This document shows, piece by piece, positions 16,142 through 32,837 of a DNA stretch of 64,000 nucleotides. The notes beneath the pieces were generated by a model, which had not been told where the DNA came from, did no database searches, and worked only from the letters and a program-made list of their open reading frames with translations. The number at the start of each line of letters is the position of its first letter. The first letter of the stretch is position 1. The DNA comes from Treponema ruminis (GTDB taxonomy: Bacteria; Spirochaetota; Spirochaetia; Treponematales; Treponemataceae). The DNA is taken from the NCBI GenBank assembly GCA_017161305.1, contig CP031518.1, forward strand, positions 1,426,001 to 1,490,000. The letters run 5' to 3'. Both the position numbers and the translations under genes were made by a program.

Positions 16142-16173
16142 TCTCACTAAATGATATTCTCCCATGTTACACT
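16142..16173 (+). promoter_or_regulatory. Island promoter 1 (shared dyad at -35, -10 TACACT)
   Basis: The dyad TCTCACTAAATGATA covers 16142-16156. TCACTA at 16144-16149 occupies the -35 position and TACACT at 16168-16173 the -10, with 18 bp between. TGT just before the -10 makes an extended -10. It drives the FlhB-C-like gene at 16198 and the gene after it. Confidence 0.75.
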
Positions 16174-16197
16174 GTATCACGGTTAAAGGGGAATAAA

Positions 16198-16563
16198 ATG
16201 CTTCAGAGAAATTTCAATACATTTTATTGGCCAAAAACAATCTCATTCTGTCAGACAAAAGACGAAATAATTAGCCGCATGAAAGATTCTGATTTTTTCG
16301 TTATTGATAAGAAAGGAAACCGGCGAATGATTGGGATGAAATATGAGGGTAAAACAATGGATTCCCCGAAAGTCACTTTTGTCGCGATGCGTCAGGAATT
16401 GCCTTTCGCGAAACAAATAGCATTTTCTTTAGGTAAAGAGGTCATTTACGATGATTGCGCATGCCGGGCACTTTTCGACTATTTCAGAGGCGAGTATATT
16501 GCAGGAAGAGATTTTCGTATTTGTGCTGAATTGTACTCTAAGGTCTGGTATTGGAGAGATTGA
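16198..16563 (+). CDS. FlhB C-terminal-domain-like small protein
   Basis: A 121-residue protein; start 16198 is chosen because AAAGGGG at 16185-16191 precedes it. Residues about 43-120 follow the FlhB cytoplasmic domain pattern: RRMIGMKYE like the AVALxY strand, SPKVTFVAM like PxVVAKG, FAKQIAFSLGKEVIYDD like the helix plus VPIxxD, RALFDYFRGEYI like LARxLYxxxxxGxxI, and FRICAELYSKVW like the final AVAEIxA helix. The NPTH autocleavage site of true FlhB is absent and there are no membrane segments. It resembles stand-alone FlhB-C proteins such as FlhX/YlqH. Found under an island promoter, not in a flagellar operon, so an export role is doubtful. Homology is judged by eye. Confidence 0.55.
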   Translation: MLQRNFNTFYWPKTISFCQTKDEIISRMKDSDFFVIDKKGNRRMIGMKYEGKTMDSPKVTFVAMRQELPFAKQIAFSLGKEVIYDDCACRALFDYFRGEYIAGRDFRICAELYSKVWYWRD

Positions 16564-16583
16564 TAAATAGGGGAGAAATGCTT

Positions 16584-17060
16584 ATGGGATCATATTTTGG
16601 AACAACCGGAATGTGGTACAAAAATGGTACATTCTATGAATTAAAAACCACACATGTTGAATTCTTTCTGCAAAATCCTGAGAAATTGGGATTCACGCAG
16701 GAAGAAAAAGAAAGACTATGCATTGAGCACGGTTTTCCGGCTGATGCCAAAACATGTTCCGAACAGTCTCCGCAGAGGACTGATTTTCTTCTTGAAGTAA
16801 TGAAACGCGGAGCTGTCAGGATTCGTTTTTACGGCGAAAAGACTTCGGTTCAATGCTATGACAAGGATAATTCCCACTGTTTCGAAGAACTTAAAAACTG
16901 TGTCATAGACGGTCTCGGAAAATGCTTCGGAGAATCAATTACCGTCATGGACACTAGAGGCTGGGGCGACAATATCAACAGTTATGGCTTTGGAACACAG
17001 ATTAAAGATTTTATAGCTTTCTCTAATCACAAAGCGAATTGGAATTATATTCCTGAATAA
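16584..17060 (+). CDS. Uncharacterised protein, second gene of island unit 1
   Basis: A protein of about 158 residues that I do not recognise. Start 16584 (MGSYFGTTG) is preferred because GGGGAG lies about 10 nt upstream; 16578 is possible. It follows the FlhB-C-like gene by 20 nt, in the same transcription unit. The C-terminal half is compact and aromatic (RIRFYGEKTSVQCYD, then ITVMDTRGWGDNIN), and several cysteines are spread through it. No signal peptide or membrane segment is seen. Confidence 0.65.
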   Translation: MGSYFGTTGMWYKNGTFYELKTTHVEFFLQNPEKLGFTQEEKERLCIEHGFPADAKTCSEQSPQRTDFLLEVMKRGAVRIRFYGEKTSVQCYDKDNSHCFEELKNCVIDGLGKCFGESITVMDTRGWGDNINSYGFGTQIKDFIAFSNHKANWNYIPE

Positions 17061-17077
17061 TCAGTTTTGGAAGAAAC

Positions 17078-18145
17078 CTAAAGATATTCCGCCATGTGTC
17101 GGACTTTTTCTTTCCATGATTGTACGAAATCTTCCGGTTCAAGAGGAATTATGTCTGCACCGTAAGAAAAGAAATCCCGCATGATTGCATGGGGCTGATT
17201 GCTTGAAAAGGAAACGAGAATGGCTCCTTCTTTGTGAGGAAGTTCACCGGTGTAGGCTTCAATTTTCTGGTCTTCTGAGAATGGCGCGTGTGAAAAATAC
17301 AATGCCGAGCCCTGGAAAATGAATTTATAAGTTTCCGGCTCTTTTAATGTATCTACCAGAGCGCCAAAACGGCCTACAGTGTATTTGCTCAGCTGCCATT
17401 CTTTTTCTGAGGGAAGCGTAAAATGATTTTTGGTAAGGCGGATGTTTTTCATCTTCGGAATGACTATTGTGCGCCTTTCTTTTTTGTCCGGATTGTCCTT
17501 TGTCGTCATGTTTCCGGTTAGATACCACTGCTCGCGGTCAAAAATCAGCTGCCAGGGTTCGATGATTCTTCCGAAAGATTTTTTGTTTGTGGAAACGGTC
17601 TCATAGTCGAATTCAAGTGCAAGATTTTCTTTGAGAGCCTTTAAGATTATGTCCCAGTCCTGTTCATCAACAAAGTCAACGTCCCTTCGTGCCATGATGA
17701 TTCGAGTTTCAAACCACGGCTTTTCCTCAAGATGTGAATTTTTGAAATTCATCTGGTTCACATCAACGACTTCAGATTTTACAGGAGATTCAAAAGTCTC
17801 GCAGATATTCAAGAGCGGACGGTAAAGCGGAGTGTTTTGGAACATCTCGAAAAGTTTCTGCACCATTGAATAGGCGGGCATTTCCTCTTCGGGGACGAAA
17901 ACGGAAGCCAGTTTGTAAAGGCGGCTTGTGTAGTGATAGCCCCCGTTTTCCCGTGAAAACTCAAGGGGCGCACGGTAACTGTCACGAAGATGGCGTAAAT
18001 CCCTGTTCAGAGTGGCGGAAGAAACTTCAAGCCGCTTGCAAAGTTCTTCTATATTATAATACTTTTCTTCCTGAAAAAGCGCGTCCAGCTGAAAGAGCCG
18101 GAAAATCTCTTTCCCTGACTGACGGGTGTCGTCCTGATTCTTCAT
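17078..18145 (-). CDS. WYL-domain transcriptional regulator
   Basis: A 355-residue regulator with an N-terminal helix-turn-helix (YYNIEELCKRLEVSSATLNR, about residues 29-48). The C-terminal WYL domain carries the QWYL tetrad at about 206-209, inside PWQLIFDREQWYLTGN. WYL regulators often control bacterial defence loci (BrxR, CapW) or DNA-damage genes (PafBC), and the WYL fold can sense nucleic acid ligands. It is the only clear DNA-binding protein inside the run of seven shared-dyad promoters, and its own unit begins with one of them (18289-18320), so autoregulation and control of the regulon are likely. No good ribosome-binding site precedes the ATG. TATACT 7 nt upstream could be a -10 giving a leaderless start. 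Confidence 0.88.
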   Translation of the reverse strand: MKNQDDTRQSGKEIFRLFQLDALFQEEKYYNIEELCKRLEVSSATLNRDLRHLRDSYRAPLEFSRENGGYHYTSRLYKLASVFVPEEEMPAYSMVQKLFEMFQNTPLYRPLLNICETFESPVKSEVVDVNQMNFKNSHLEEKPWFETRIIMARRDVDFVDEQDWDIILKALKENLALEFDYETVSTNKKSFGRIIEPWQLIFDREQWYLTGNMTTKDNPDKKERRTIVIPKMKNIRLTKNHFTLPSEKEWQLSKYTVGRFGALVDTLKEPETYKFIFQGSALYFSHAPFSEDQKIEAYTGELPHKEGAILVSFSSNQPHAIMRDFFSYGADIIPLEPEDFVQSWKEKVRHMAEYL

Positions 18146-18177
18146 GAGGAAAGTATAACATGAGAATTTGGAATTTG

Positions 18178-18261
18178 CTATTGTTTTGATAGAGTATCTT
18201 CAGCATCTTCAAAGACAACAATCTCCCCGCTCGCTTCCAGTCTGCGTACGGTCTTTTCCAT
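18178..18261 (-). CDS. 27-codon ORF resembling the C-terminal helix of FliG
   Basis: ATG at 18261 follows an AAAGGGGG ribosome-binding site, arranged like that of the gene at 16198. The product contains TVRRLEASGEIVVFEDAED, which matches the classical end of FliG (the IVRRLEEEGEIVI-type last helix and strand). All upstream FliG-C sequence is missing. It is either a deletion remnant that kept promoter, leader and tail, or a real micro-protein. It is the first ORF behind island promoter 2, 32 nt before the WYL regulator. Confidence 0.5.
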   Translation of the reverse strand: MEKTVRRLEASGEIVVFEDAEDTLSKQ

Positions 18262-18288
18262 AAGTTTGCCCCCTTTAATCTTGAGGTA

Positions 18289-18320
18289 AGTGTAGCAGGG
18301 GAGAATATCATTTAGTGAGA
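18289..18320 (-). promoter_or_regulatory. Island promoter 2 (drives mini-FliG ORF and WYL regulator)
   Basis: Read on the minus strand: TCTCACTAAATGATA (18320-18306), TCACTA at 18318-18313, 18 bp, then TACACT at 18294-18289 with TGC before it. The dyad overlaps the last codons of the ATPase gene at 18308, so that gene's stop codon (TGA, 18310-18308) lies inside the operator. Confidence 0.75.
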
Positions 18321-19282
18321 ATGGAAGAAATTTCTTTCATAGCTGGCGAATTTAATATTTTTGTCTTTACTGTATCTGACAAATAATTTGAATTCAGTTT
18401 TTTCTTTGCGTATTTTAAATGCGTTGCTGAAGATTTTTCAATCAGAACAGAGGTGAAAAACTGTTCCCAGCTGAAAAAATTCTTGCTTTCGATAAAATCA
18501 GACGGATTTCCTAAGATTTTTGCAATTTCAGAATCCTTAAAAAGTTCTGCCTGTAAAATAAGGTATTCAAAAGATTCTGGCAAAAACAAAATGCAGTTTT
18601 TCTTCCGTTGAACAAGCTGCATGACCATATTTATTTGGGAGCCAAAAGCCGCTCCATCTGCAATCACCAGAACCGTATCTGATGTTTCATTTAGTTTTTG
18701 GAAAATATTTGATTTTCCGCCTGCTGACTCACACTCAATTTTTCCTCGTGATACTTCCGAAAAGAATTCAAAACCCGCGTTCGAGTCTTCTGTTAAAATC
18801 TTTTGAACATTTTTTGCAGAATAATCATTCGGAACTGAGTAAATATGATAAAACTCGTGATAAACCTGCTTTAGTCCTGCGTATTTCCCCGAGGTATGAA
18901 TTCCGTAGATTTCTTCCACGCTATACGGAAGATTTTCAAGTCCCTCGCGGGTTACGAGTACATAATAATTGTTTGAACCTTTTATCTGCCTTGCGAAATC
19001 AGTAGAAGCGATAAAGCGGTTCCCCTCATCAACAAAGACAATACATTCATCATACAGGGAAAGGGTTTTTTCCCAGTCATTACCTTCAAGAACGACACAT
19101 TTTTTTTCGCAGGAAAGATTTATACCGCTATCGGCTCCGTTCTGCTGAAATTCACGGATTAAATCAATTAGCGTTGTTTTTCCAGTCGCGCTGTTTCCCT
19201 GAATAATCGTGATGTTTCGGCGAATCGTGAATTCATATTTTACACGGTTATTTTGGACTGAAAGTGTGAATGAACCTTTCAT
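18308..19282 (-). CDS. P-loop ATPase, partner of DUF4869
   Basis: A 324-residue protein with Walker A GNSATGKTTL near residues 29-38 and a Walker B-like CIVFVDEGNRF near 84-94. The opening FTIRRNITIIQGNSATGKTT is typical of an uncharacterised ATPase often found in gut bacteria and sometimes mislabelled as an initiation factor. Its ATG overlaps the end of the DUF4869 gene by 4 nt, and that pairing is conserved to my knowledge. Function unknown; a two-gene defence or stress unit is a guess. It is not behind a shared-dyad promoter but reads from the promoter at 20217-20246. Confidence 0.75.
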   Translation of the reverse strand: MKGSFTLSVQNNRVKYEFTIRRNITIIQGNSATGKTTLIDLIREFQQNGADSGINLSCEKKCVVLEGNDWEKTLSLYDECIVFVDEGNRFIASTDFARQIKGSNNYYVLVTREGLENLPYSVEEIYGIHTSGKYAGLKQVYHEFYHIYSVPNDYSAKNVQKILTEDSNAGFEFFSEVSRGKIECESAGGKSNIFQKLNETSDTVLVIADGAAFGSQINMVMQLVQRKKNCILFLPESFEYLILQAELFKDSEIAKILGNPSDFIESKNFFSWEQFFTSVLIEKSSATHLKYAKKKLNSNYLSDTVKTKILNSPAMKEISSILTK

Positions 19283-19716
19283 AAACAGCCCCCGACTTCG
19301 GAAAGCAGTTCCGTCATTGAATGCACGATTTTGTCTTTGTTCAGGATTTTAATTTCAAATTCACCGTCACCAAAGTCCATTACATGCCTGAGATTCACAG
19401 TTACATCTTTTTTTGCCGCAATCTTCAAGAGCCACGAAGCACAATTATCGCCGCAATTTGATGCATTGAAGATTTTGTCGCTGATATGGTCAATCAGAAT
19501 CAAAGTCTTCACACCGCCGGAAAGCGATGTCGGAGGAATTATACCGAGAACAGGACTCTCAATTGCTCCCTCAGAAATGACTTTGGAATTGTCGATGTCA
19601 AGAATCATTTGCTTTGTCTGCTCTTCCAAAAGCCATTCACCTTCATAGACATTCTTGAAAAAGACTGAGGTATTGTAAATTGTGTTTTCGTATTCACCGA
19701 AGATTATGTTTAGCAT
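19279..19716 (-). CDS. DUF4869 domain protein
   Basis: A 145-residue protein that fits DUF4869 from end to end: MLNIIFGE at the start, ESPVLGIIPPTSLSGGVKTL in the middle, then NASNCGDNCASWLL and LRHVMDFG. Role unknown. It is translated with the downstream P-loop ATPase through a 4-nt overlap and follows the truncated DUF262 gene by 21 nt in the same operon. Confidence 0.8.
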   Translation of the reverse strand: MLNIIFGEYENTIYNTSVFFKNVYEGEWLLEEQTKQMILDIDNSKVISEGAIESPVLGIIPPTSLSGGVKTLILIDHISDKIFNASNCGDNCASWLLKIAAKKDVTVNLRHVMDFGDGEFEIKILNKDKIVHSMTELLSEVGGCL

Positions 19717-19737
19717 GAAGAAACCTCTAAGTGTGGC

Positions 19738-20187
19738 TTATAGCTTTTCTTTTATTGCATTTCGTATCAAATCTTTACGTTTTTCAATAAACTCTTTAAA
19801 ATTAGTGATTGCTAGTCCGCAATCAGGAATATAATTCCTCTGCATGTACAATTTTCTGTCAGATTCATTTGGATAAGTCTCCATTATCCATTCATCAAGA
19901 ATAGCCGTTATTGATTTTTCCCCAATAAGATTTGCCTTTTCATTATGGCGATTATTTTTTTCATGAAAGTTCCGAATGAATTCGTAAAACTGAAATTTAG
20001 GAATATTGTTTTCATTTACTTCCCAAAAGAGGAAAGAACTTATTGGATAACCACGCATTATTGAATCAAACAATAACTCTATCTTCTCTGTTGTCCAGAC
20101 AAATTCTCGCTGGATGGCTGGTAAAAAATAGTCTTTATTTATTTTCTCTACAGCAGTCCTTATTGAAATCGGTTGTGCAAAACCCAT
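19738..20187 (-). pseudogene. DUF262 (GmrSD-type) protein with large internal deletion
   Basis: The first ~98 residues are a clean DUF262 N-terminus (YFLPAIQREFVWTTEKIELL, YPISSFLFWEV), ending at SITAILD exactly where intact members continue with the GQQRLTSL active-site motif. The sequence then jumps in frame to a C-terminal tail (NESDRKLYMQRNYIPD, FKEFIEKRKDLI) of the kind that ends full-length ~550-600-residue DUF262/DUF1524 proteins. The catalytic DGQQR motif and the whole nuclease part are gone. The start (GGAGG 8 nt upstream) and reading frame are preserved, so a 149-residue product may still be made. Confidence 0.75.
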
Positions 20188-20216
20188 AGTTGGCCTCCTA
20201 AATTCTACCTGATGCT

Positions 20217-20246
20217 ATTATAAAATTCATTTTACAATTATGACAA
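20217..20246 (-). promoter_or_regulatory. Promoter of the DUF262-DUF4869-ATPase operon
   Basis: On the minus strand TTGTCA (20246-20241), 18 bp, TATAAT (20222-20217). It differs from the shared island promoters and lacks the dyad. Confidence 0.65.
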
Positions 20247-20291
20247 GATAGATTTTTTTTATTCTCGCAATTCGTTTTATGCCCTTTTTCC

Positions 20292-22457
20292 TTACGCACA
20301 GAATCCCATATGGCGCTCTTCGACTTTTTCCAGTCGTTCAGTTTCGCATAGTTCGACAAGTTCTTCGTATGACGGCATTTTTCCCTTTATGATTTCGTTC
20401 ATCTCACATTTTCGCACTATGTTGTCGATTTCACCGCCTGAAAAATCATATTTCCCGGCAAGTTTTTCTGCGTCTTCTTCGGATAAAGCCTTCATTTTGC
20501 TTTTCCAGATCTTCGTTCTGGCTTCAAGGCTCGGCTTCTCGTACTTCACTTTGAAAAGAAAGCGGCGCTCGAAAGCCTTGTCCATGTTCTCACACAGGTT
20601 TGTCGTTGCAATCATGATTCCCTCAAGCTTTTCCATTTCTTCAAGGAGGATGTTCTGCATGGCATTTTCAGTCTGGGCGACACTCCCGCTTGAGACATCA
20701 CGGCGTTTTGAAATGAGGGCATCGGCCTCGTTAAAGAGCAGAATCGGAGTATTCTCGCGATGTCTCCTGCAGCTTTTGCAGAGCATTCTGTAATCCGTGA
20801 AAATCTTCTTGATTTTCTTTTCGCTTTCGCCGAACCACATTGATTTTGAGTCGGCAATATCAACATGTAAGATTTTTCGCTTGGTCTGGCGGGCAAGCTG
20901 GTATGCGGTTTCTGTCTTTCCTGTTCCCGGCGCACCGTACAAGATTACGGCTATTCCTTTTGGAAGTCCTTTTTCTTCAAGACGGCTTTGCATTGCTTCA
21001 AGATTTTTCTGAACCAGACTTTCAGAGAGCATGTCTATCTGCTTTTGAACCGGCTCAGAATAGAAGAGATGCTTTTCATTGATTTTTCTGCTGTCAATCA
21101 CATTCTTTGCGCTGCCTGTTTTCATGTAGATATCAGCATTCTTGCCGTAAAGGAGTTCGACTGTCTTATCGGAAACCGTGACTCGTGAGTTTTCAATGAC
21201 TTCATTCTTTTCGATTTCAATGAAATTCTTTTTAACAAGAGGGTGTGTTTCATCAAGCAGCGAGCGCATTTCTGTGAAATATTGTTCACTGTGGCCATAC
21301 AAATCATTGAGAGTTGAAGCAATTGAAGATTTTCCGCCCAAAAGAAAATCTTTCGTACAGTCATAAAGGAAAAACCGGTTGTCTTCATCATGAACGGCTT
21401 TCGTTATCCTTTTGAAAAACGGAAGATTCTGATGCTTCTGCTCAATTTTTCTGAGATTACTTCTTTTTTTATATTTAGAAATATCCTCATCCTCATACAC
21501 ATAGCCGAATTCATGAAGAGCATTCAATGTTTTATCTGTCTCATTTAGAAGCATGTCTTCCTTAATGTAAAGTTCCGCCTCGCTTCCGAAAATCTGTCTT
21601 ATTCCGTCGGCAGTAAGTTTAAGCGTGATTTTTAGTCTAGGTTTTCCTCTGAAATATTCATCACTTGTCTCATAAATCAGCTCTGACAGTTTGTTTTTAA
21701 TTAAAATATCTGAATCTTCAAACAGACTTGCACGACGCACATATTTTTTTTGAGGATTGATTATTCGAAGAATTGCGTAGTCGAGCCGATTTCTCCTGTC
21801 GTCATCATTATCTGGATCATTTTCGCTGATCACGGTGTCAAAACAAAGACTGTAAAGAATCGAACGGCTGTCAAAATCATCTGGAAAAAGCTTATTGATA
21901 TTTTTTAAGAATTCTTTTTCAGCGTATTTCCGCTCAAGATTGCAAATCTGTCGCTTAAATTCAGTAAAACTCATTTTTCGTTCACAAAAACCTTGCTGAA
22001 CATCATGCAGTTCACTCAAAACGCTTTCAGTTGTCTCCTCGTTTTCCTCAAAAAAGACAATCGGCTCGCCGTCAATAACATTGTTCATAACCGTTCCGGT
22101 GATTTTGTACCCGTTATTTTCAGGATGATGACTGATATTGCGGAGGTCGTCCATGTAAATCAGATTTTTCTTTTCAAGCACATCGATTTCTTTTCGAAAT
22201 TCAAGGATATGCAGAAACGAATAATCCAAAAATCCCGCGATGGCATGTAAATTCACCGAGGTCTGCCGCTGATTCTGCAGAACAAAAATAACAACAAAAA
22301 AGATTGCGGCAAGTTCATCACAATCAAGATATGAAGCGATATCCTGAATCTCCGGGCGGACTTCATCCATCACGGACTTATCAAGTTTTGAGGCTTCAAG
22401 TTTTTCTGAAACCGCGATAATCGTAGATAAAATAGATGAATTTTCGTGTAAAGTCAT
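20292..22457 (-). CDS. AAA+ ATPase under island promoter
   Basis: A protein of about 721 residues; start 22457 is chosen over 22469 because the codons from 22469 themselves form the GGAG site. The C-terminal third is an AAA+ module: Walker A YGAPGTGKTETA near residue 507, Walker B ILLFNEADAL near 575 (Asn-Glu in place of Asp-Glu, then Asp), a sensor-like IATTNL, and an arginine finger region FERRFLFKV. The N-terminal 450 residues look like helical and winged-helix repeats without a family I can name. Such ATPases usually remodel a protein partner. It is the only gene behind island promoter 3. Confidence 0.85.
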   Translation of the reverse strand: MTLHENSSILSTIIAVSEKLEASKLDKSVMDEVRPEIQDIASYLDCDELAAIFFVVIFVLQNQRQTSVNLHAIAGFLDYSFLHILEFRKEIDVLEKKNLIYMDDLRNISHHPENNGYKITGTVMNNVIDGEPIVFFEENEETTESVLSELHDVQQGFCERKMSFTEFKRQICNLERKYAEKEFLKNINKLFPDDFDSRSILYSLCFDTVISENDPDNDDDRRNRLDYAILRIINPQKKYVRRASLFEDSDILIKNKLSELIYETSDEYFRGKPRLKITLKLTADGIRQIFGSEAELYIKEDMLLNETDKTLNALHEFGYVYEDEDISKYKKRSNLRKIEQKHQNLPFFKRITKAVHDEDNRFFLYDCTKDFLLGGKSSIASTLNDLYGHSEQYFTEMRSLLDETHPLVKKNFIEIEKNEVIENSRVTVSDKTVELLYGKNADIYMKTGSAKNVIDSRKINEKHLFYSEPVQKQIDMLSESLVQKNLEAMQSRLEEKGLPKGIAVILYGAPGTGKTETAYQLARQTKRKILHVDIADSKSMWFGESEKKIKKIFTDYRMLCKSCRRHRENTPILLFNEADALISKRRDVSSGSVAQTENAMQNILLEEMEKLEGIMIATTNLCENMDKAFERRFLFKVKYEKPSLEARTKIWKSKMKALSEEDAEKLAGKYDFSGGEIDNIVRKCEMNEIIKGKMPSYEELVELCETERLEKVEERHMGFCA

Positions 22458-22481
22458 AATTTTCTCCATGTTTATAAGCTA

Positions 22482-22513
22482 AGTGTACAATGGGAAGATA
22501 TCATTTAGTGATA
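22482..22513 (-). promoter_or_regulatory. Island promoter 3 (AAA+ ATPase)
   Basis: A perfect dyad, TATCACTAAATGATA, spans 22513-22499. TCACTA is at 22511-22506 and TACACT at 22487-22482, with 18 bp between. About 25 nt separate the -10 from the start codon. Confidence 0.75.
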
Positions 22514-22527
22514 GTTAAGTAAGAAAC

Positions 22528-23463
22528 TCACAGTTCCTTTTTCCAGTTCTCATAGTACTTATTTCTGAAGCCATCTTCCACTTCCCAGGGTTGTGGGTGA
22601 TGATACATTCGGGCCCTGTAAAGCCAGCGTTCCCGGCCGGTGTGATTTGTGCCATTTCTTGTGTAGACTTTTATTTCGGACATTTTCATTTCCGGGTGTC
22701 TGTACGGATATCTTTTGAAGAAATTTTCAGAAAGCTTAGCGATTGAAAGCGGAAACTCGTTTTTGAGATTCTTTGACATCAGAAAATCATCAAGTTCTTT
22801 CTGGCGTTCTTCGTCGGAAAGTTTTTCCTGATAAGCCCGATAGCTGTAGACATTATGAAAATGTCCGGCCATTTCTTCTGAATCTTCTTTTGTGATATTC
22901 GGAAGAAAATAGATGCACTTTGTATGGTCGCTCTTTCCTGGAATCTTCTCAAAATCAAAATGACCGTGGCGGAGTTCATCTTCAAATTTTTCCTGCTCTT
23001 TGGTGTAAAAATCATCACTGTCGGGAACATAAATCTTCCAGGCGTAAAGAACTGGGGTGTCGCAATTTTCCCATAAGCTCTCAAGGTATTCTATAATAAT
23101 CGTTCTTGCATCTTCATTTATAACAGTTATATCATCTGCGATTGATTTGCAAATATGATAATACTCCAAAGTTTCTTTCTTTGTGATTGCAAACTTTGCT
23201 TTTGCTGCCTCAAAGAAAACTGACTGATTGGAAATGATTTCTCCGGCTTCCTTAAAACTTGCGTACAGCCCTTTTTTCTCAAAATCATTTCTCAACCATT
23301 CTTCACTGTATTTCTTCGGACACATTGCCATAATGTGCAGACCGTAGCGCAAGGTAATATTGCCCACCTTGTATTTTGCCGTAAAATCATGCGACCACCA
23401 GGTTACTTCAAGTTTTACTCCATCTTTTTCTGTTGTGAATGTTTTCCATGGGATATTGCTCAT
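22528..23463 (-). CDS. Uncharacterised protein under island promoter
   Basis: A 311-residue soluble protein that I do not recognise. The start has a strong AGGAGG site 6 nt upstream. It is rich in aromatic residues and histidine (VTWWSHDF near the N-terminus, RMYHHPQPWEVEDGF near the C-terminus). The middle is helical and charged. No membrane segments or nucleotide-binding motifs are seen. It lies between island promoter 3 and island promoter 4, which drives it, so it belongs to the same putative regulon as the AAA+ gene downstream. Confidence 0.7.
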   Translation of the reverse strand: MSNIPWKTFTTEKDGVKLEVTWWSHDFTAKYKVGNITLRYGLHIMAMCPKKYSEEWLRNDFEKKGLYASFKEAGEIISNQSVFFEAAKAKFAITKKETLEYYHICKSIADDITVINEDARTIIIEYLESLWENCDTPVLYAWKIYVPDSDDFYTKEQEKFEDELRHGHFDFEKIPGKSDHTKCIYFLPNITKEDSEEMAGHFHNVYSYRAYQEKLSDEERQKELDDFLMSKNLKNEFPLSIAKLSENFFKRYPYRHPEMKMSEIKVYTRNGTNHTGRERWLYRARMYHHPQPWEVEDGFRNKYYENWKKEL

Positions 23464-23497
23464 AACTGGCCTCCTGTTTCGTCGGTAGATTTATTTT

Positions 23498-23529
23498 ATT
23501 TTACGTTCTGAGTGTGTCATTTAGTGATA
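23498..23529 (-). promoter_or_regulatory. Island promoter 4
   Basis: On the minus strand TATCACTAAATGACA (23529-23515), one mismatch in the dyad; TCACTA at 23527-23522, 18 bp, then TAAAAT at 23503-23498. The -10 differs in sequence from the others but keeps the spacing. Confidence 0.65.
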
Positions 23530-23530
23530 G

Positions 23531-23767
23531 TGGGGAGATTTTTCAGGAAAGTATTTTGATAAATCCGTTGCACTCGAAATCAGCAACAAATACGGTTACA
23601 GCATTATGGAAGCCCTTAGAAAATTTCTATTTTCAAAAACTTACCAGATGCTTTGCAATCCTGAACTTGAAATGTGGGAATTCAGCCCTCTGGGGATTTT
23701 TGATATGTGGGAATCCGAGCAAATCACAGGAAATCCACGGAATTCCCTCTATATAAGGAGAGATTAA
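23531..23767 (+). pseudogene. N-terminally truncated partner gene of DUF3791
   Basis: The frame opens right after a stop at 23528-23530 and runs to TAA at 23765-23767, immediately before the DUF3791 ATG. It reads YFDKSVALEISNKYGYSIME, then CNPELEMWEFSPLGIFDMWE and a final NSLYIRRD, a small conserved protein normally translated just upstream of DUF3791. The usual first residues and start codon are missing; the first ATG is at 23606, deep in the conserved part. The break falls at the promoter 4 dyad, suggesting this end was cut when the neighbouring cassette arrived. Confidence 0.6.
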
Positions 23768-23968
23768 ATGTCAAAAGAAATTGAATTTTTCACCTTTCTC
23801 CTTGAACAGTACGCTGCCTACAAAAATACTACCGCCGATAAAATCTTAAAGCAACTCGATGACTTAAAACTTACGGATTATGTCATAAGCATGTATGAGA
23901 TGTACCATTCGGAAGCCATCGAAAATGCTTTTGCAGATTTAGACAGACTGATTGCGGAAAAAGAATAA
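23768..23968 (+). CDS. DUF3791 family small protein
   Basis: A 66-residue acidic helical protein (IEFFTFLLEQYAAYKNTTAD, then YVISMYEMYHSEAIENAF) matching DUF3791. It starts directly after the stop of its truncated partner (TAAATG) with AAGGAG upstream. These proteins occur in gut bacteria next to small toxin-like genes, and a toxin-antitoxin role has been suspected but not shown as far as I know. With its partner headless, this may be an orphan. Confidence 0.7.
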   Translation: MSKEIEFFTFLLEQYAAYKNTTADKILKQLDDLKLTDYVISMYEMYHSEAIENAFADLDRLIAEKE

Positions 23969-23979
23969 AAAAATTCCGA

Positions 23980-24912
23980 TTATTGAGGTCTTGCTATCTC
24001 AAGGCTTGTCAGCTCATAAGAAGTATCATGAAAATTGTTTTCGACAGATTCATCTCCTGCTTGAAGATTCGCGTTCAATTCATCCATAGTTTCTTTATGA
24101 AGTTTTACTGCTTCTTCAAAACTCATGTTGTTCATATCAACAAATAACTTCCCAGACGGAATCTTTTCTGAGTCCTGATAAATATTGCAGGTATAAGCGA
24201 TGCGGTATGTCGACTTTTGTTGTTCAGAACTGTTCTTAAAGTTCAAGGCAGCAAACAAATCTCCCGAATCAAGAACGATATAGTCCAGGCTGTGAAGAAT
24301 CAGGATTTCTTTGTTTTTTATGACAAAGATTTTCAGAACATCAAGCTGCTCGTCGGTGAGATTGCATTTTTCGCGTTTTTCCAAGAGGCGCGGCTTGTCA
24401 CTGATTGTTAAGCAAATGTATTTCCCGTCGCCTGGATTTTTAAAACGAATCACATTTTCATAAGCTACTTTGCCGTCTTCTGTAAGATATGGTTCTCTCG
24501 ACCAGAAAGTTGCGCAGCCGCAGGAAACAGAGCAGGGAAGGGGAAATCCGGGCAGGCTTTTGGGAAGTATAGTCGTGGAAAAGAAACCAAAATATTCATA
24601 ATGATACAGGTCTTCCATGACTTCATACATCTGCTCCAAAAGCGTTTTGAACTCAACGGCAAGTTTTGAGGTTTTGTCAGCAAAGCTCTCCCACTTCATC
24701 AGACTGATTTTGATTTCAAAGTAACAGTCGATAATAAGGATGCTGGTAAATTTGTTGATGATTGCAAAGGAATCAAACAGTTTCTTAAGCGATTTTACCT
24801 CTTCCATCAGCGATTCGTCTGGTTTATGGCTCAAAATGTCGTCCGCTAGAGAAGAAAGTCTTTTGATGAAGATATTCGCTTTTTTGTCGTATTCGTCATC
24901 TTTGTATTTCAT
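23980..24912 (-). CDS. Uncharacterised protein under island promoter
   Basis: A 310-residue protein of unknown family. Start 24912 (MKYKDDEYD) is preferred over 24942 because GGAG lies 8 nt upstream. The first ~110 residues are helical and charged. A cysteine-rich segment PLPCSVSCGCATFW sits near the middle, followed by a beta-rich half (LHSLDYIVLDSGDLFAALNF). It is expressed from island promoter 5, divergent from the gene at 25033. The Cys cluster could bind metal; nothing else suggests a function. Confidence 0.7.
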   Translation of the reverse strand: MKYKDDEYDKKANIFIKRLSSLADDILSHKPDESLMEEVKSLKKLFDSFAIINKFTSILIIDCYFEIKISLMKWESFADKTSKLAVEFKTLLEQMYEVMEDLYHYEYFGFFSTTILPKSLPGFPLPCSVSCGCATFWSREPYLTEDGKVAYENVIRFKNPGDGKYICLTISDKPRLLEKREKCNLTDEQLDVLKIFVIKNKEILILHSLDYIVLDSGDLFAALNFKNSSEQQKSTYRIAYTCNIYQDSEKIPSGKLFVDMNNMSFEEAVKLHKETMDELNANLQAGDESVENNFHDTSYELTSLEIARPQ

Positions 24913-24944
24913 GTTCCTGTCTCCGTAACTTTCAAGATACACAG

Positions 24945-24976
24945 ATGATAGCAGACAGAAATATCATTTAGTGATA
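24945..24976 (-). promoter_or_regulatory. Island promoter 5
   Basis: A perfect dyad TATCACTAAATGATA at 24976-24962; TCACTA 24974-24969, 18 bp, -10 TATCAT 24950-24945. It is back to back with island promoter 6. Confidence 0.7.
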
Positions 24977-24994
24977 ACAAAATTTTTTTTTCAA

Positions 24995-25026
24995 TCTCAC
25001 TAAATGATATTTTCCCCAGGTAAACT
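24995..25026 (+). promoter_or_regulatory. Island promoter 6 (likely leaderless transcript)
   Basis: TCTCACTAAATGATA at 24995-25009, TCACTA 24997-25002, 18 bp, -10 TAAACT 25021-25026. The next ATG is at 25033, where transcription should begin, and no ribosome-binding site is present. Its dyad is 33 bp centre to centre from that of promoter 5, about three helical turns. Confidence 0.7.
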
Positions 25027-25032
25027 TCTTTC

Positions 25033-25320
25033 ATGGAAATTGAACCAATATCTTCTGTCGGAAGTGATTTCTATGTTTCCCAGATATATCTGCAAAAATC
25101 ACTTCGTAGAAAAAAAAGAAAAGATTCTTCTATTATAGTACGTCCGTTTCCTGAATTGCTTGCAGAGGCAATCGAGAAGTGCAGGGCTGAGGAAGAATTT
25201 GAAGCATACATACATTCTGCTCCAAAAATAGAATCAATGGAAAACTTCATTTCAGAGCAGATAGAACTGTGCCGAACTCAATTTTTGCGGTTGAACTGTC
25301 TGCTTTGTAAGAGAGATTAA
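25033..25320 (+). CDS. Uncharacterised 95-residue protein under island promoter
   Basis: Not recognised. The N-terminus has a basic patch (LQKSLRRKKRKDSS), the rest is acidic and helical (LLAEAIEKCRAEEEFEAYIH), and three cysteines lie in the last 20 residues. The ATG is 6 nt after the -10 TAAACT with no Shine-Dalgarno, so translation is probably leaderless. Its promoter is diagnostic of the island regulon, which supports it being a real gene despite its size. Confidence 0.55.
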   Translation: MEIEPISSVGSDFYVSQIYLQKSLRRKKRKDSSIIVRPFPELLAEAIEKCRAEEEFEAYIHSAPKIESMENFISEQIELCRTQFLRLNCLLCKRD

Positions 25321-25322
25321 AA

Positions 25323-25883
25323 TTATAATAAAATTTCTTTTATAGGAAGTCTATTTAATAATTCATTCAGAATATCTTTGTTTTTCTTTTTTAATTGATT
25401 GTATTCTTCTTTAGTTATTTTTATTAGAGAAATGTTTGCCATATTATAGATTTTTATTAAATCATGTGGCTCAAAGTTTTCCGGTTTTTGATGTGTTTTT
25501 GCCTGCTTGTTTTCTTCCGACGTTACGAAGCATAATTTACAGAATTTCTCTTTATATAATGAGAACACTTTATTTCCATTGATTTCTTTTTCTTTTAATA
25601 ATTCTCTAGCTGATATTTTTCGTGGAAATAAGTGTTCTTCACTTATTTTAGGTTTCCCGTCTTTAAAAGTCTTTAAGCAATTTATAGATATATATCCGGT
25701 GAAAGAATTTTCTAATTCTGGTAGATACCATAAAGCTGCACCAATAGTCGTTTCAATAAATGCTTTTTGATTATCTGTAGCATTTTTATATTTATCTTTT
25801 ACACCTAAGACTAATTCTGCCAAAGCTTCACAGCGCTCTAAAGCCTTTTGCTCCTGATTTTCTTTTTTTGATTGATTATTCAT
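25323..25883 (-). CDS. Uncharacterised protein with EEHLFPR motif (possible HNH-like nuclease)
   Basis: A 186-residue protein, more AT-rich than its neighbours. The central SEEHLFPRKIS resembles the first half of HNH/DUF1524-type nuclease motifs (EHxxPR), and TYPE-like cysteines CKLC follow, but I cannot place a complete active site. The ATG is inside the decayed toxin remnant (25876-25941), and it probably took over that unit's translation (GGAG and GGG upstream). It converges with the gene ending at 25320. Function unknown. Confidence 0.6.
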   Translation of the reverse strand: MNNQSKKENQEQKALERCEALAELVLGVKDKYKNATDNQKAFIETTIGAALWYLPELENSFTGYISINCLKTFKDGKPKISEEHLFPRKISARELLKEKEINGNKVFSLYKEKFCKLCFVTSEENKQAKTHQKPENFEPHDLIKIYNMANISLIKITKEEYNQLKKKNKDILNELLNRLPIKEILL

Positions 25884-25941
25884 ATTTTTCCCTTAATCTC
25901 CTGCTGCCAAAATCAAGCATATAAACATCACCACGTGTCAT
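25876..25941 (-). pseudogene. MazF/PemK-like toxin stub
   Basis: ATG at 25941 opens MTRGDVYMLDFG, the standard start of MazF/PemK ribonuclease toxins, then runs into unrelated sequence and stops after 21 codons. It overlaps the end of the frameshifted antitoxin, the usual toxin-antitoxin arrangement. Everything after the first strand, including the catalytic residues, is missing. Confidence 0.65.
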
Positions 25942-26135
25942 TCTTTACACTCTCCCATACAGTTGCAAGGCTTGATTCTCTAAGTTTTTGTAAAGATTCT
26001 TCTTCAGAATACTCATTACTTAAAATAGAAGTTTTTTTTATTAATATTATTTGCTACAAAATTGAGCAAATGAATTTGTTCTGCTAAAGAGAATGTTCTA
26101 ACCTGTTCTTCTACATATGCAAGGGCATCAGACAT
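25928..26135 (-). pseudogene. Frameshifted antitoxin of a MazF/PemK-type module
   Basis: ATG at 26135 starts MSDALAYVEEQVRTFSLAEQ, then the frame breaks at a run of eight A (minus strand) near 26032-26039. With seven A the frame continues through KKTSILSNEYSEEESLQKLR to LATVWESVKNDTW and a TGA at 25930-25928 that overlaps the toxin ATG. The layout, about 68 residues followed by an overlapping toxin start, is that of a type II antitoxin. One base is inserted relative to the inferred ancestor. Confidence 0.65.
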
Positions 26136-26211
26136 ATCAAACCTTCAAATCAATTATATCATACTTAATCAGATTTTAACATAAATTTAGACTCCATTTT
26201 TTTCTCTGCAA

Positions 26212-26243
26212 TCTCACTAAATGATATTCTCCCATGCTACACT
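26212..26243 (+). promoter_or_regulatory. Island promoter 7 (FliG/MotA-like fusion gene)
   Basis: TCTCACTAAATGATA at 26212-26226, TCACTA 26214-26219, 18 bp, -10 TACACT 26238-26243 preceded by TGC. The stretch from 26211 to 26243 is nearly identical to promoter 1, ten kilobases away. Confidence 0.75.
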
Positions 26244-26279: not shown

Positions 26280-27434
26280 ATGGATTTTGATATTTTTTTG
26301 AGTCTTAGTGCACGGTCGGTTCAGAAAGTTCTGCGCAATATTGACAGTGAAACGGTTGAGCTTGCGCTGCAGAATACAGACGGAATAATGAAAGGAAAGT
26401 TTTTCGGAGTTATGTCCAGCCGCGCCGCCCAGTTAATGCAGGATCAGATGAGTAAGCTGGAAGCAGTTGATGAAAAAGCGATTGAATCTGCCCGTCAGAA
26501 GATGCTTCAGGAACTACACGCTTTAATTGAAAACGGTGAGATTACCGAAATGGACACCAACGATTATGAAGACAATATCAACAGTAATGGCGATATAAAA
26601 CAGTTTAGCGATTCTTCGGAGAAAACAATGCTTACATTTGAAAACATTCCCTCATTCAGATTTTTGACCCGCGCCCAGAAACACCGTATTTTCAGGATTC
26701 CGCCGCTTTTGTGTATTCTTGCAAGAAAATCCCGCAGGGAAGGAATTCTTGCGCTTGAAGAAGGTATTGATGATTTGGTCGGTGAAGTTGATAAGCGTGA
26801 CGAATGGTTTTTGATGAATTTTATGCGGATGGTTTTGGATTTCACAGAGGAGGATAAGGCTGACTTGTCTGTGACTTTTAAAAACCTTGTAACAGCAAGT
26901 GGCGGTTCAAAACTTTCCATCCTCTGCCACCAGATGATTGCAGCAGGTTGTACTGGCATTTTGGAAGGCTGTCACGAAAAGACGATTTTATATCACCTTG
27001 CAAGTTTTCTCGGAAATAAATGGCAGGATGAATTTTTTACAAGTCCTGAAATGCATTACATTCTCACACAAATAAACTGCCCGCACAGCATTATCATAAA
27101 CGATGGAAATGATTTTCTTTATCCAGAAGCTGATGCAGATTGCAGCAGTCATCCGCTTGCTTTGATTTTTGAATATTCAGACAGTGCCATTCAAAAAATT
27201 TTGCGCGAAGTCAGTACGGAAGATCTTTGTCTTGCCTTTAAAGATGCACGCGCAAAAATAAGGAATGCATTTCTCAAGAATATGTCTGAACGAGCTAGAT
27301 ATTTTTTAAAAATGAAATTAGATGATGAGACTGAACCGTATAACAGACAGAAAATTCTGGAAGCGCAGCAAAGGCTGGGACATGTAATCAAAAGGCTTGA
27401 AGATGCCGGGGAGATTAAAAGGAAGCATGAATAA
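26280..27434 (+). CDS. FliG-C / MotA-loop / FliG-C fusion-like protein
   Basis: A 384-residue soluble protein with AAAGGAGG before its ATG. Residues 1-90 follow the FliG C-terminal domain: SARSVQKVLRNIDSETVELA, KFFGVMSSRAA, a helix, and LHALIENGEI. Residues 293-384 repeat it: DSAIQKILREVSTEDLCLAF, FLKNMSERAR, KILEAQQRL, VIKRLEDAGEI. Between them (about 140-245) is a segment like the MotA cytoplasmic loop and tail: ILARKSRREGILALEEGIDD, FLMNFMRMVLDFTEED, then MIAAGCTGILEG and LASFLG, without MotA's membrane helices. In the motor, FliG-C and the MotA loop bind each other, so the fusion joins both sides of one interface. It stands alone behind island promoter 7, outside any flagellar operon. Assignments are by eye. 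Confidence 0.65.
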   Translation: MDFDIFLSLSARSVQKVLRNIDSETVELALQNTDGIMKGKFFGVMSSRAAQLMQDQMSKLEAVDEKAIESARQKMLQELHALIENGEITEMDTNDYEDNINSNGDIKQFSDSSEKTMLTFENIPSFRFLTRAQKHRIFRIPPLLCILARKSRREGILALEEGIDDLVGEVDKRDEWFLMNFMRMVLDFTEEDKADLSVTFKNLVTASGGSKLSILCHQMIAAGCTGILEGCHEKTILYHLASFLGNKWQDEFFTSPEMHYILTQINCPHSIIINDGNDFLYPEADADCSSHPLALIFEYSDSAIQKILREVSTEDLCLAFKDARAKIRNAFLKNMSERARYFLKMKLDDETEPYNRQKILEAQQRLGHVIKRLEDAGEIKRKHE

Positions 27435-27696: not shown

Positions 27697-28059
27697 ATGA
27701 CAAAGAAAACGGAAAAACAGAAACATCTTCGCCTTATGAAATATGAGACAGGCTTACCTGTGAATATTGTGAATGTTCAGTATTATGTTACGGCTGAATT
27801 CGGGCTGATGCAGTACATAGAAGTCCAGTGTAATACGAATGATGAATTGAATGAAGAACAGCCCGAATGGATTTTTTTCAGCGAAGAAGCAGAAGTTTTA
27901 TCGGTCGATATTTTTGGAGGGACGTCAGATCTTCCAGATGATGTTTTGAATGTTATGAAAGAATATGTGAAAAAATCATACAAAGATAAAAATTCTTTGT
28001 TATATAAATATTTTGAACAACGCAGGCGGGAAGGGGAAAAAGTTCAGCCCCTCAATTAA
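27697..28059 (+). CDS. Uncharacterised 120-residue protein
   Basis: Not recognised. It has a basic N-terminus, a beta-rich centre (IVNVQYYVTAEFGLMQYIEV) and an acidic, helical C-terminus ending in a charged run (YFEQRRREGEKVQP). It begins 21 nt after the DnaB-like fragment and may be the last gene of the island promoter 7 unit. It converges with the XRE gene, overlapping it by 8 nt. Confidence 0.55.
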   Translation: MTKKTEKQKHLRLMKYETGLPVNIVNVQYYVTAEFGLMQYIEVQCNTNDELNEEQPEWIFFSEEAEVLSVDIFGGTSDLPDDVLNVMKEYVKKSYKDKNSLLYKYFEQRRREGEKVQPLN

Positions 28060-28297
28060 AGAATTCCCGCCAGTTTTTGCCTAACGCTTCTGCCAAAGCA
28101 CAGATTCCCCGTATTGATAGATGTTCGCCTGCTTTGAGCCGGTTAATTGTGGCAATCGAAAGATTTGTACGGTAACAAAGTTCCTGTGCTGTTAATCCTG
28201 ATTCGGCAACACATCGTTTTACATTTGCAGAAACTACATCTTGTAAATCAAATTCCATGAACTCTGAATAAGTGTTTCTAACCGCTTTCATTTCCAT
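28052..28297 (-). CDS. XRE-family helix-turn-helix protein
   Basis: An 81-residue regulator. Start 28297 is fixed by AAGGAGG 6 nt upstream; longer readings upstream are not supported. The helix-turn-helix is GLTAQELCYRTNLSIATINR followed by LKAGEHLSIRGICALAEALG. It lies 127 nt downstream of the methylase-HsdS gene on the same strand. A GC-rich region with stem-forming potential (28310-28375) precedes it. It may regulate the methylase gene or be an antitoxin; there is no direct sign of its operator. Confidence 0.75.
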   Translation of the reverse strand: MEMKAVRNTYSEFMEFDLQDVVSANVKRCVAESGLTAQELCYRTNLSIATINRLKAGEHLSIRGICALAEALGKNWREFFN

Positions 28298-30266: not shown

Positions 30267-31261
30267 TTATTTTTGTGGGAGGGCAGCCTTAGCCGCCATC
30301 ACTATGTCCGGCGTGTAGCTGGTCATCCTTGTCAGCTCAATATAATTGCTCCGTTGGAATACTGTTCGTCAGGATTTTCTGCGTAGTAATTGCAGGTAGA
30401 AATATAAATGGAAACAGCCCCGCATTCACTTTTCTGTGAACGAAGTCGTTCTACAGCAAGTTCCGTGTACTGAACCAGAGCACATTCCAGCGTCTTCATG
30501 TCATAAACCTTTTTGGAGAACTGGCGGCTGGATGTTATCACATCCTTCTTCTCACGGATAACTTTATCAATGCAGGAAATCCCGTTCAGCTCCTGGACCG
30601 TCGCAAATCCTTGAATCGTGAGAAGTTTTTTGGCATCGAATAAGGGCATATCCTTTAACTGCAATGCGTTTTTGATACCATGTGAAAGAAGCGTACGGGC
30701 TCGGGCAGGGCCGATTCCCCAGATTGTGCCGCAGTCAGTTTGAGCCAAAAATTCATCTACCTTCGATGGCTCATAGACGAAAACTCCGCCGTGTTCCTTG
30801 GCCTTTTTGTTATAGAGTTTTGCAAGAGTTTTTGTTGGAGTTGCTCCCACACAGATGGGCATTCCGATTTCTTTATAAATCCGTTGCTTCAAGTCATGTC
30901 CTATTTCATACCAATCCTGAACAGAGAAATTGCATCGGTTGAAAAAAAGAAAAGATTCATCAATAGAATACTCTTCAATATCCGGAGCATATTCCATATA
31001 TATAGAAGTAATTCGCCTTGAAATATCCGCGTATAGCGTGTAGTTACTGGAAAAGACAGTGATATTATTTGATTCACAGATATGCCTTACTTTGAAAAAG
31101 GGATCTCCGCGCTTAATACCTAAAGCCTTAGCTTCCTTGGTAAGGGCAATAATGATTCCGTCATTGTTCGATAAAACTGCAACAGGCTTTTCGCGTAAAT
31201 CAGGTCGAAAAATCTGTTCACAGGAAGCATAAAAGCTATTGCTGTCACAATGAAGAATCAT
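30267..31261 (-). pseudogene. umuC: umuC (DNA polymerase V-like), frameshifted and 3' truncated
   Basis: The first 309 codons form a good Y-family polymerase: LHCDSNSFYASCEQIFRPDL, SNNDGIIIALTKEAKALGI, YSIDESFL with catalytic Asp-Glu, and a helix-hairpin-helix WGIGPARARTLLSHGI. The frame then ends at 30332. Removing an extra AT at about 30338-30345 restores IELTRMTSYTPDIVMAAKAA, the expected continuation, but that too ends at 30267, some 85 residues early. So the gene has a 2-nt frameshift and has lost its C-terminus, including the beta-clamp-binding part. It follows the umuD remnant with a 4-nt overlap. Confidence 0.8.
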
Positions 31262-31408
31262 ATTTCCTTTACCGTGTGAATGACATTTATTATTGCTCCC
31301 GTCACATGTACCTCTTTTTTAATGCCATTCAGCCGTCCGATAACGAATTCTCCGTTCAAATCTGTTGTCTTCATAGCCCTGGGCAGGACTTGGGAATCCT
31401 GTTATCAT
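31258..31408 (-). pseudogene. umuD: umuD remnant with internal deletion
   Basis: ATG at 31408 starts MITGFPSPAQGYEDN, the canonical UmuD beginning including the Ala-Gly region. After about 14 residues the UmuD pattern jumps to another frame, TTDLNGEFVIGRLNGIKKEV, then INVIHTV and a TGA overlapping the umuC ATG, which is the UmuD C-terminal end. The central S24 protease part with the catalytic Ser-Lys pair is deleted. Confidence 0.75.
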
Positions 31409-31415
31409 AATTTAG

Positions 31416-31465: not shown

Positions 31466-31514
31466 CTCTTTATATAATCTTTTTTGTGTGGTATACTTTT
31501 GGAAGAGGGTAGAA

Positions 31515-32147: not shown

Positions 32148-32161
32148 TTGGTTCACAGAAT

Positions 32162-32836: not shown

Positions 32837-32837
32837 A

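What the first reader, a model, noticed from the sequence alone, without database searches (positions are those of the whole stretch)
16142..26243. Seven identical-architecture promoters define a regulon inside the island
Seen: the dyad TATCA-N5-TGATA (or TCTCACTAAATGATA) occurs at 16142, 18306, 22499, 23515, 24962, 24995 and 26212. In every case TCACTA is followed, after exactly 18 bp, by a -10 hexamer (TACACT four times, TAAACT, TAAAAT, TATCAT) pointing into a gene. TCACTA is a poor -35, and the dyad covers it, so binding of a regulator there should decide transcription. The seven units lie on both strands and their products are unrelated in sequence. Such a fixed cassette of promoter plus variable gene suggests coordinated expression and perhaps shuffling of genes behind a common control element.
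Basis: seen in the sequence. Interest (0 to 1): 0.88.

Follow-up and report, generated by a model that had tools for sequence, protein, structure and literature searches.

The report
One switch controlling a bacterial gene island
Seven matching on-switches in a Treponema chromosome belong to a wider set of switches that one regulator protein probably uses to turn on a variable set of genes beside virus-defence genes, and the same arrangement recurs in related species.

Summary
All seven sites exist, each with a -10 hexamer exactly 18 bp after TCACTA. TCACTAAATGA occurs 8 times in the 2.9-Mb genome: 7 here, 1 before a related operon 206 kb away. The element recurs in other Treponema. In 21 stretches fetched without a -10 criterion, 41 of 49 perfect dyads have TANNNT at that exact offset; no other offset exceeds 6. 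In 146 genomes of the order, 6 of 28 of this genus match and 0 of 118 from 59 other genera. The sites track one WYL regulator encoded in the island: 11 of 14 genomes with a close homologue have an exact site, against 8 of 182 without. Downstream genes form a shared pool, partly reordered: AAA ATPases, FliG and FliM homologues, DnaB-like proteins, MoxR and many unknowns. The window's island adjoins Wadjet and type III restriction genes. Best reading: a DriD-like WYL activator binds over a poor -35 at a fixed distance from the -10 and switches the pool on, perhaps on sensing single-stranded DNA. Binding, activation and signal are inferred; repression remains possible. New variant of a known kind.

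The parts
16142..16173 (+). dyad TCTCACTAAATGATA plus -10 TACACT (16168-16173)
16198..16563 (+). first gene after the 16142 site, 121 aa; no Pfam match (searched from 16189)
16578..17060 (+). second gene, 160 aa; family found in 5 of the stretches compared
17078..18145 (-). WYL regulator, proposed regulator of all sites; predicted own leaderless promoter just upstream of its ATG
18289..18320 (-). dyad TCTCACTAAATGATA plus -10 TACACT, pointing at the WYL gene 175 bp from its start
20292..22469 (-). AAA+ ATPase, 721-725 aa (C-terminal AAA; partial match to PADLOC IetA); same family behind the same promoter in six islands including this one
22482..22513 (-). dyad TATCACTAAATGATA plus -10 TACACT, before the AAA gene
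22528..23463 (-). 311-aa protein of unknown function
23498..23529 (-). dyad TATCACTAAATGACA plus -10 TAAAAT
23980..24912 (-). 310-aa protein of unknown function; homologues in four other stretches, three of them behind the same promoter
24945..24976 (-). dyad TATCACTAAATGATA plus -10 TATCAT
24995..25026 (+). dyad TCTCACTAAATGATA plus -10 TAAACT (divergent from the 24962 site)
25033..25320 (+). 95-aa ORF, unknown
26212..26243 (+). dyad TCTCACTAAATGATA plus -10 TACACT
26280..27434 (+). protein with two FliG C-terminal domains (flagellar motor switch homologue)
27697..28059 (+). 120-aa family present in six of the stretches compared, no dyad of its own
28052..28297 (-). small protein that reads by eye as an HTH protein; family in five stretches, next to the methylase
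28425..30074 (-). N6 DNA methylase fused to a type I specificity domain; family in five stretches

Best explanation
The 32-bp element is an activator-dependent promoter. A homodimer of the WYL protein encoded at 17078-18145 binds the dyad TMTCAYTAAATGATA. The dyad is centred at about -31, over a non-consensus -35, exactly 11 bp upstream of a TANNNT -10 that often carries the extended -10 TG. Bound there it recruits the housekeeping RNA polymerase, as DriD does in Caulobacter. By analogy with DriD and PafBC the signal would be single-stranded DNA from DNA damage or phage replication. The result would be joint expression of a variable gene pool beside defence genes. Shown: sites, spacing, orientation, recurrence, co-occurrence with the WYL gene, dyads upstream of some WYL genes, shared gene pool, WYL fold of the regulator. 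Inferred: binding, dimerisation, activation rather than repression, the signal, and a defence role.
For: Fixed spacing: 41 of 49 perfect dyads in 21 stretches fetched without a -10 criterion, at most 6 at any of 28 other offsets; among 85 weaker or variant dyads (up to 2 mismatches, without TCACTAAATGA) 35 at that offset and at most 6 elsewhere (for the first 17 stretches). Two close relatives, G105 and G112, give 22 of the 49. Orientation: reading 77 dyads forward gives a -10 in 64 and an ORF start with a ribosome site in 54; backward 9 and 6; random positions 201 of 3300. Extended -10 TG in 23 of 59, mean 1.75 at eight other offsets. TCACTA matches TTGACA at 2 of 6. Regulator: a full exact site in 11 of 14 genomes with a close WYL homologue, 8 of 182 without; four or more sites in 9 of 14 against 2 of 182. 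A dyad with 0-1 mismatch within 300 bp upstream of 6 of 12 close WYL genes examined. A second, distant WYL group has the dyad plus TATAAT or TATGAT directly upstream and a related recognition helix. Best fold matches DriD and PafBC, then BrxR and CapW. [quoted passage not shown]).
Against: No expression or binding data. The WYL model is only moderate (mean pLDDT 66.8, pTM 0.39) and TM-scores to DriD are about 0.4, so the fold ranking is weak evidence for activator over repressor. Pfam WCX and HTH_11 are below their curated cut-offs. Six of 12 close WYL genes lack a dyad within 300 bp; of 18 more distant WYL genes chosen by protein match alone none has one with 0-1 mismatch within 260 bp. Eight genomes have an exact site but no close WYL homologue: G005, G097, G098, G136, G174, G176, G179, G190; three of them (G136, G174, G179) are over 90% complete. 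A recognition helix of the same type also occurs in WYL proteins whose upstream dyad is weaker (L146, L147, L152), so the helix does not prove specificity. In two species the dyad abuts the -10 of the WYL gene itself, a repressor-like position.
Confidence: 0.62

Rival explanations
1. The WYL protein is a repressor of the BrxR or CapW type: it covers the -35 region and blocks otherwise active extended -10 promoters until a ligand releases it.
For: The neighbourhood holds defence systems (Wadjet, type III restriction), where BrxR and CapW are repressors (PMC9122601, PMC9122588; passages read). The dyad overlaps the core promoter. Extended -10 TG is enriched. In G034 and G019 the dyad abuts the WYL gene's own -10.
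Against: Repression does not need a fixed phase, yet the spacing is fixed to the base. CapW sites overlap the -10 and the BrxR site lies just downstream of it; these dyads overlap the -35 as DriD sites do. The -35 is poor. BrxR and CapW rank behind DriD and PafBC in the fold search, on a moderate model.
Confidence: 0.25
2. Another regulator, such as the small HTH-like protein beside the methylase or a different WYL paralogue, binds the dyad, and the island WYL protein is a passenger.
For: The HTH-like family is in 5 stretches. A second WYL group has the same kind of dyad upstream of its own genes, and eight genomes with an exact site lack the close WYL homologue, so paralogues may share the dyad.
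Against: In the gene sets compared, the HTH-like family is absent from G004, G019 and G166, which do have sites (short contigs). The close WYL homologue tracks the sites.
Confidence: 0.1
3. The repeats are remnants of a mobile element or of recent duplications, without regulatory meaning.
For: Three window sites share nearly identical spacers (9-10 of 11). Gene order differs between some species.
Against: Outside the 32-bp core the window sites resemble each other little (13-31 of 60 upstream, 17-30 of 78 downstream; the 31 is the divergent pair 24962/24995). The core mostly faces a gene start, and in one orientation (54 of 77 against 6 of 77 backward).
Confidence: 0.03

Closest known systems
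DriD (Caulobacter crescentus), WYL activator of an SOS-independent DNA damage response
   Same: WYL fold; [quoted passage not shown] G-14; site in a bidirectional promoter beside the regulator gene (PMC12340889, a preprint, passages read).
   Different: Different dyad (ATACGAC-N7-GTCGTAT against TATCAYTAAATGATA); the targets named in the passages read are five promoters (didA, bapE, recJ, dnaG, CCNA_03891/01149), not 14 dyads in one stretch as in G105 and G112; single-stranded DNA activation not tested here.
PafBC (mycobacteria), WYL heterodimer acting by sigma adaptation
   Same: WYL activator that lets the housekeeping polymerase use promoters by going between DNA and sigma domain 4 (PMC11804915, passages read).
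   Different: Heterodimer; one HTH reads a -26 motif and the other contacts sigma; no defence-island clustering in the passages read.
BrxR and CapW, WYL repressors of BREX and CBASS
   Same: WYL protein beside defence genes, binding a palindrome in a local promoter (PMC9122601, PMC9122588, passages read).
   Different: Sites overlap the -10 (CapW) or lie just downstream of it (BrxR), one or two per locus; these proteins rank lower in the fold search; the Treponema protein is longer (355 aa).
SiwR (Mycobacterium smegmatis)
   Same: Homodimeric WYL activator with an imperfect palindrome between the -10 and -35 regions and adjacent targets (PMC10693628, passages read).
   Different: One target operon in the passages read.

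Membership tests
DriD/PafBC-type WYL transcription activator | N-terminal winged HTH followed by a WYL domain | tested here: met
   Pfam WYL 29.9 bits (cut-off 21.8), HTH_DeoR and Mga just above cut-off, HTH_11 just below; fold matches
DriD/PafBC-type WYL transcription activator | C-terminal WCX domain | tested here: inconclusive
   WCX 19 bits, below the cut-off of 23.9
DriD/PafBC-type WYL transcription activator | binding site at a constant distance from the -10, overlapping a poor -35 | tested here: met
   41 of 49 perfect dyads at one offset; TCACTA matches TTGACA at 2 of 6; binding itself not shown
DriD/PafBC-type WYL transcription activator | activation of transcription in contact with RNA polymerase | not testable with these tools
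   needs in vitro transcription or reporters
DriD/PafBC-type WYL transcription activator | activation by single-stranded DNA bound in the WYL domain | not testable with these tools
   inferred from the family only
BrxR/CapW-type WYL repressor | operator at or just downstream of the target promoter -10 | tested here: not met
   target dyads span about -38 to -24; the feature is met only at the WYL gene's own promoter in G034 and G019
Defence-island regulator | next to recognised anti-phage systems | tested here: met
   JetA 4208, JetC 6187, JetD 9431, type III Mod 10808 and Res 12935; homologues of that Res gene beside the WYL gene in G159, G151, G069
Integron-like cassette array | all cassettes in one orientation behind one promoter | tested here: not met
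   sites on both strands, most units with their own promoter
Integron-like cassette array | attC sites and an integron integrase | not tested
   no search made

The most novel reading that the evidence does not exclude
A Treponema-specific infection or DNA-damage programme. A DriD-like WYL activator turns on, at once, up to 14 promoters gathered in one island, most with a single gene behind them, including FliG middle/C-domain and FliM homologues and DnaB helicase-domain proteins. These may interfere with the cell's own flagellar motor and replisome. The 32-bp promoter acts as a portable plug, so that any gene arriving behind it joins the regulon.
Probability: 0.2. Interest if true: 0.82.

Novelty: new variant of a known kind. 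Interest (0 to 1): 0.62.

Why it matters
How whole defence islands are expressed together is poorly known; the WYL regulators of defence loci in the papers I looked into (BrxR, CapW) have one or two sites. Here one regulator appears to control up to 14 promoters in one island, with base-exact geometry that matches a described activation complex, so the model can be tested directly. It also puts flagellar switch and DnaB-like genes of unknown purpose under the same apparent control, beside defence genes, and gives a search key (dyad, 11 bp, TANNNT) that finds further members.

Tried and rejected
Phage origin: 20 viral contigs carry the full pattern, one match each (not examined one by one), and a separate scan found no viral contig with a close WYL relative. 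Of ten island proteins only the AAA and DnaB-like ones hit PHROGs. Rejected as the source.

Recent duplication of longer cassettes: rejected for the window, identity ends at the 32-bp core.

Chance: rejected. Three single TCACTAAATGATAT sites in genomes without a close WYL homologue (G165, G136, G193) have no -10; G136 has a full exact site elsewhere.

A function for the 310-aa family by fold: no PDB match at E 0.001 or better. Led nowhere.

A conserved leader peptide before the WYL gene: the 27-aa ORF has only weak, probably chance matches elsewhere. Dropped.

Biases to know. One search left out four stretches already fetched (L075, L076, L077, L081); with them the count is 41 of 49 instead of 41 of 48, and I give that figure. 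Stretches L133-L152 were picked from a list that required the -10, so the -10 counts are raised by them. They also raise the 13 of 43 WYL genes with a dyad (0.08 expected from shuffled letters): in the 30 chosen by protein match alone (L082-L111) it is 5, all among the 12 close homologues; in the other 13 it is 8. The site list was cut at its end (no sites of G066 and G128 seen), so 8 of 182 could be up to 10 of 182. The match list was also cut, below E of about 3e-25, so further fragments of close homologues may be missed. Four of the 14 close homologues are partial (G151, G069) or fragments (G152, G175). The gene caller is a simple script.

Literature: full-text searches for WYL with Treponema, for WYL with spirochaetes, transcriptional activator and operator, and for FliG with FliM and defense island showed nothing on this regulon (listings only); only the open PMC set was searched.
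Full report
CHECK OF THE OBSERVATION. The seven sites are real and exactly placed. Each has TCACTA, 18 bp, then a TANNNT hexamer. At the window's TANNNT frequency of 0.017, seven of seven by chance is about 4e-13. In the 2.9-Mb genome TCACTAAATGA occurs 8 times against 0 for the reversed control. The eighth site, 206 kb away, has a -10-like TTATAT and precedes a row of two unknowns, MoxR, DUF2201, another unknown and a second WYL protein; a weaker dyad next to it precedes an RtcB-like fragment (the name RtcB is recalled, no family search was made for it). In two larger islands (G105, G112) homologues of these genes sit in the main island. The window genome reads as Treponema: two named relatives of its WYL protein are Treponema metagenome assemblies.

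IS IT MORE THAN THIS GENOME? Yes. TCACTAAATGATAT occurs in 10 of 196 genomes of the genus: 6 times in G105, 6 in G112, 3 in G004, 7 in this genome (six of them in the window), and once in each of the other six. With a degenerate pattern that includes the -10 and allows one mismatch, 46 of 196 genomes match against 4 of 196 for the reversed control. In a draw of 146 genomes from the order, without mismatches, 6 of 28 genomes of this genus match and 0 of 118 from 59 other genera. In 21 stretches fetched by the dyad core, by its near match or by the WYL protein, without any -10 criterion, 41 of 49 perfect dyads have TANNNT at the one offset, against at most 6 at each of 28 other offsets; for dyads with up to two mismatches that lack TCACTAAATGA it is 35 of 85 against at most 6. 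G105 and G112 are close relatives and give 22 of the 49. Several of the exceptions carry a one-base variant such as CATTAT at the same place.

DIRECTION AND GENE STARTS. The dyad is nearly symmetric, so reading it backward is a natural control. Of 77 perfect sites, forward reading gives a -10 in 64 and an ORF start with a ribosome site 40-90 nt away in 54; backward reading gives 9 and 6; random positions 201 of 3300. Part of the sample was chosen with the -10 in the pattern, so the -10 figure is inflated; start codons were not selected for. The extended -10 dinucleotide TG is present in 23 of 59 collapsed sites, against a mean of 1.75 at eight neighbouring offsets.

WHO BINDS IT. A close homologue of the window's WYL protein (53% identity or more) was seen in 14 of 196 genomes, four of these as partial matches or fragments. 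A full exact site (dyad and -10) is in 11 of these 14 and in 8 of the other 182; four or more sites (up to one mismatch) in 9 of 14 and 2 of 182. The eight are G005, G097, G098, G136, G174, G176, G179 and G190; three of them are over 90% complete, so loss from the assembly does not explain all, and a paralogue may serve there. In 6 of 12 close WYL genes examined a dyad lies within 300 bp upstream of the start; the other six have none. In G034 and G019 it abuts the WYL gene's own -10, which suggests autorepression. In 9 of 12 the WYL gene has a -10 exactly six bases before its ATG, read by eye, which predicts a leaderless transcript. A more distant WYL group (about 26-30% identity) has the dyad plus TATAAT or TATGAT directly upstream in G133, G096, G068, G021, G150 (one mismatch) and G136, and its recognition helix resembles that of the first group (ATINRDI or ATIYRDI against, for example, ATLNRDI). 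These stretches were chosen for having the motif. A helix of the same type also occurs in WYL proteins with weaker dyads (L146, L147, L152), and none of 18 distant WYL genes chosen by protein match alone has a dyad with 0-1 mismatch. The window copy differs in one respect: its dyad is 175 bp upstream, with a short ORF between.

HOW IT PROBABLY WORKS. With the -10 at -12 to -7, the dyad spans about -38 to -24 and is centred at -31, on the -35. TCACTA matches TTGACA at 2 of 6. A repressor would not need base-exact phase; an activator that touches polymerase would. In passages read from the DriD cryo-EM preprint (PMC12340889; [quoted passage not shown] the driD promoter itself is bidirectional, with the activated operon facing away. 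G004, G015 and G152 show a comparable divergent layout. The predicted WYL structure is moderate (mean pLDDT 66.8, pTM 0.39), and its best PDB matches are DriD and PafBC, ahead of BrxR and CapW, with TM-scores of about 0.4 or less for the full-length chains when scaled to the query. I take DriD-like activation as most likely (0.62), a BrxR/CapW-like repressor as second (0.25). Single-stranded DNA as the signal is inference from the family.

WHAT IS CONTROLLED. Comparison of 17 stretches gives 44 protein families with two or more members, some of them ordinary flanking genes. Those with the promoter in at least one place include the 720-aa AAA ATPase (six islands), a 390-417-aa family without Pfam match, FliG homologues, some aligning with the FliG middle and C domains (domain names of the PDB match recalled), a FliM homologue with two FliN-type stretches, DnaB C-domain proteins, a YspA-like SLOG protein and MoxR. 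Several shared genes lack a dyad of their own, among them the N6 methylase fused to a specificity domain and its small HTH-like neighbour. Fourteen distinct dyads with a -10 lie in each of the G105 and G112 stretches, against 7 in the window and 3-5 in G015 (main cluster), G019, G004 and G166. Gene order is kept between the two close islands (G105 and G112: 24 of 29 adjacencies). Among other pairs with at least eight shared families it is 3 of 7 (window against G105, window against G112, G105 against G015) and 2 of 8 (G112 against G015). Pairs that share few families range from 4 of 4 (G105 against G004) and 3 of 3 (G004 against G166) to 1 of 4.

CONTEXT. To the left of the sites the window holds Wadjet genes JetA, JetC and JetD and a type III restriction-modification pair; homologues of that Res gene also sit beside the WYL gene in G159, G151 and G069. 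A defence role is therefore plausible. The controlled proteins themselves have few defence-model matches: the AAA protein matches IetA in part, and of the FliM, MoxR and DUF2201 proteins none matches. No function is shown for most of them. A DNA damage role is an alternative: in G034 a 920-aa protein with a PD-(D/E)XK nuclease domain follows a site, in G163 an SNF2-type helicase does, and in G179 a 207-aa protein with an SMC_N match below Pfam's cut-off does.

STANDING. What is new is the scale and the gene content: one WYL regulator, one exact promoter geometry, up to 14 promoters in one island, in one genus so far. The kind of regulator is known. I therefore call it a new variant of a known kind.

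Noticed in passing
window 4208-10624: Wadjet type I genes: JetA 4208-5605, JetC 6187-9441, JetD 9431-10624.
   Followed up: partly
window 10808-15703: Type III restriction-modification pair, Mod 10808-12934 and Res 12935-15703.
   Followed up: partly
window 18308-19716: A small ATPase gene overlapping a DUF4869 gene, both without the dyad, lying between the WYL and AAA genes that are neighbours in G004 and G019; looks like an inserted module.
   Followed up: no
window 19738-20187: A 149-aa ORF that matches only the N-terminal part of GmrSD/HEC-05 models; apparently a remnant.
   Followed up: no
window 18145-18170: The WYL gene and 8 of 11 other close WYL genes examined have a -10 six bases before the ATG, which predicts leaderless mRNA (read by eye).
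   Followed up: partly
L080 (G000 1,230,000-1,242,000): Off-island row of genes behind the same kind of dyad: two unknowns, MoxR, DUF2201, an unknown and a WYL protein, beside an RtcB-like piece of 122 aa where G105 has a 409-aa gene (RtcB named from memory).
   Followed up: partly
G105 C6 62175-63224: The WYL homologue of one of the two richest islands contains an in-frame TGA near its end; none is reported in the close relative G112.
   Followed up: no
L112, L140, L148: Larger proteins of 772-776 aa with two AAA domains stand behind such dyads in other species; in L148 the hexamer at the -10 place is TATTAA.
   Followed up: no
window 30332-34603: A Y-family polymerase-like gene, an HTH plus S24-peptidase-like gene and an IS3-type transposase pair follow the island (read by eye; a PADLOC scan of the first gene had no hit).
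   Followed up: no
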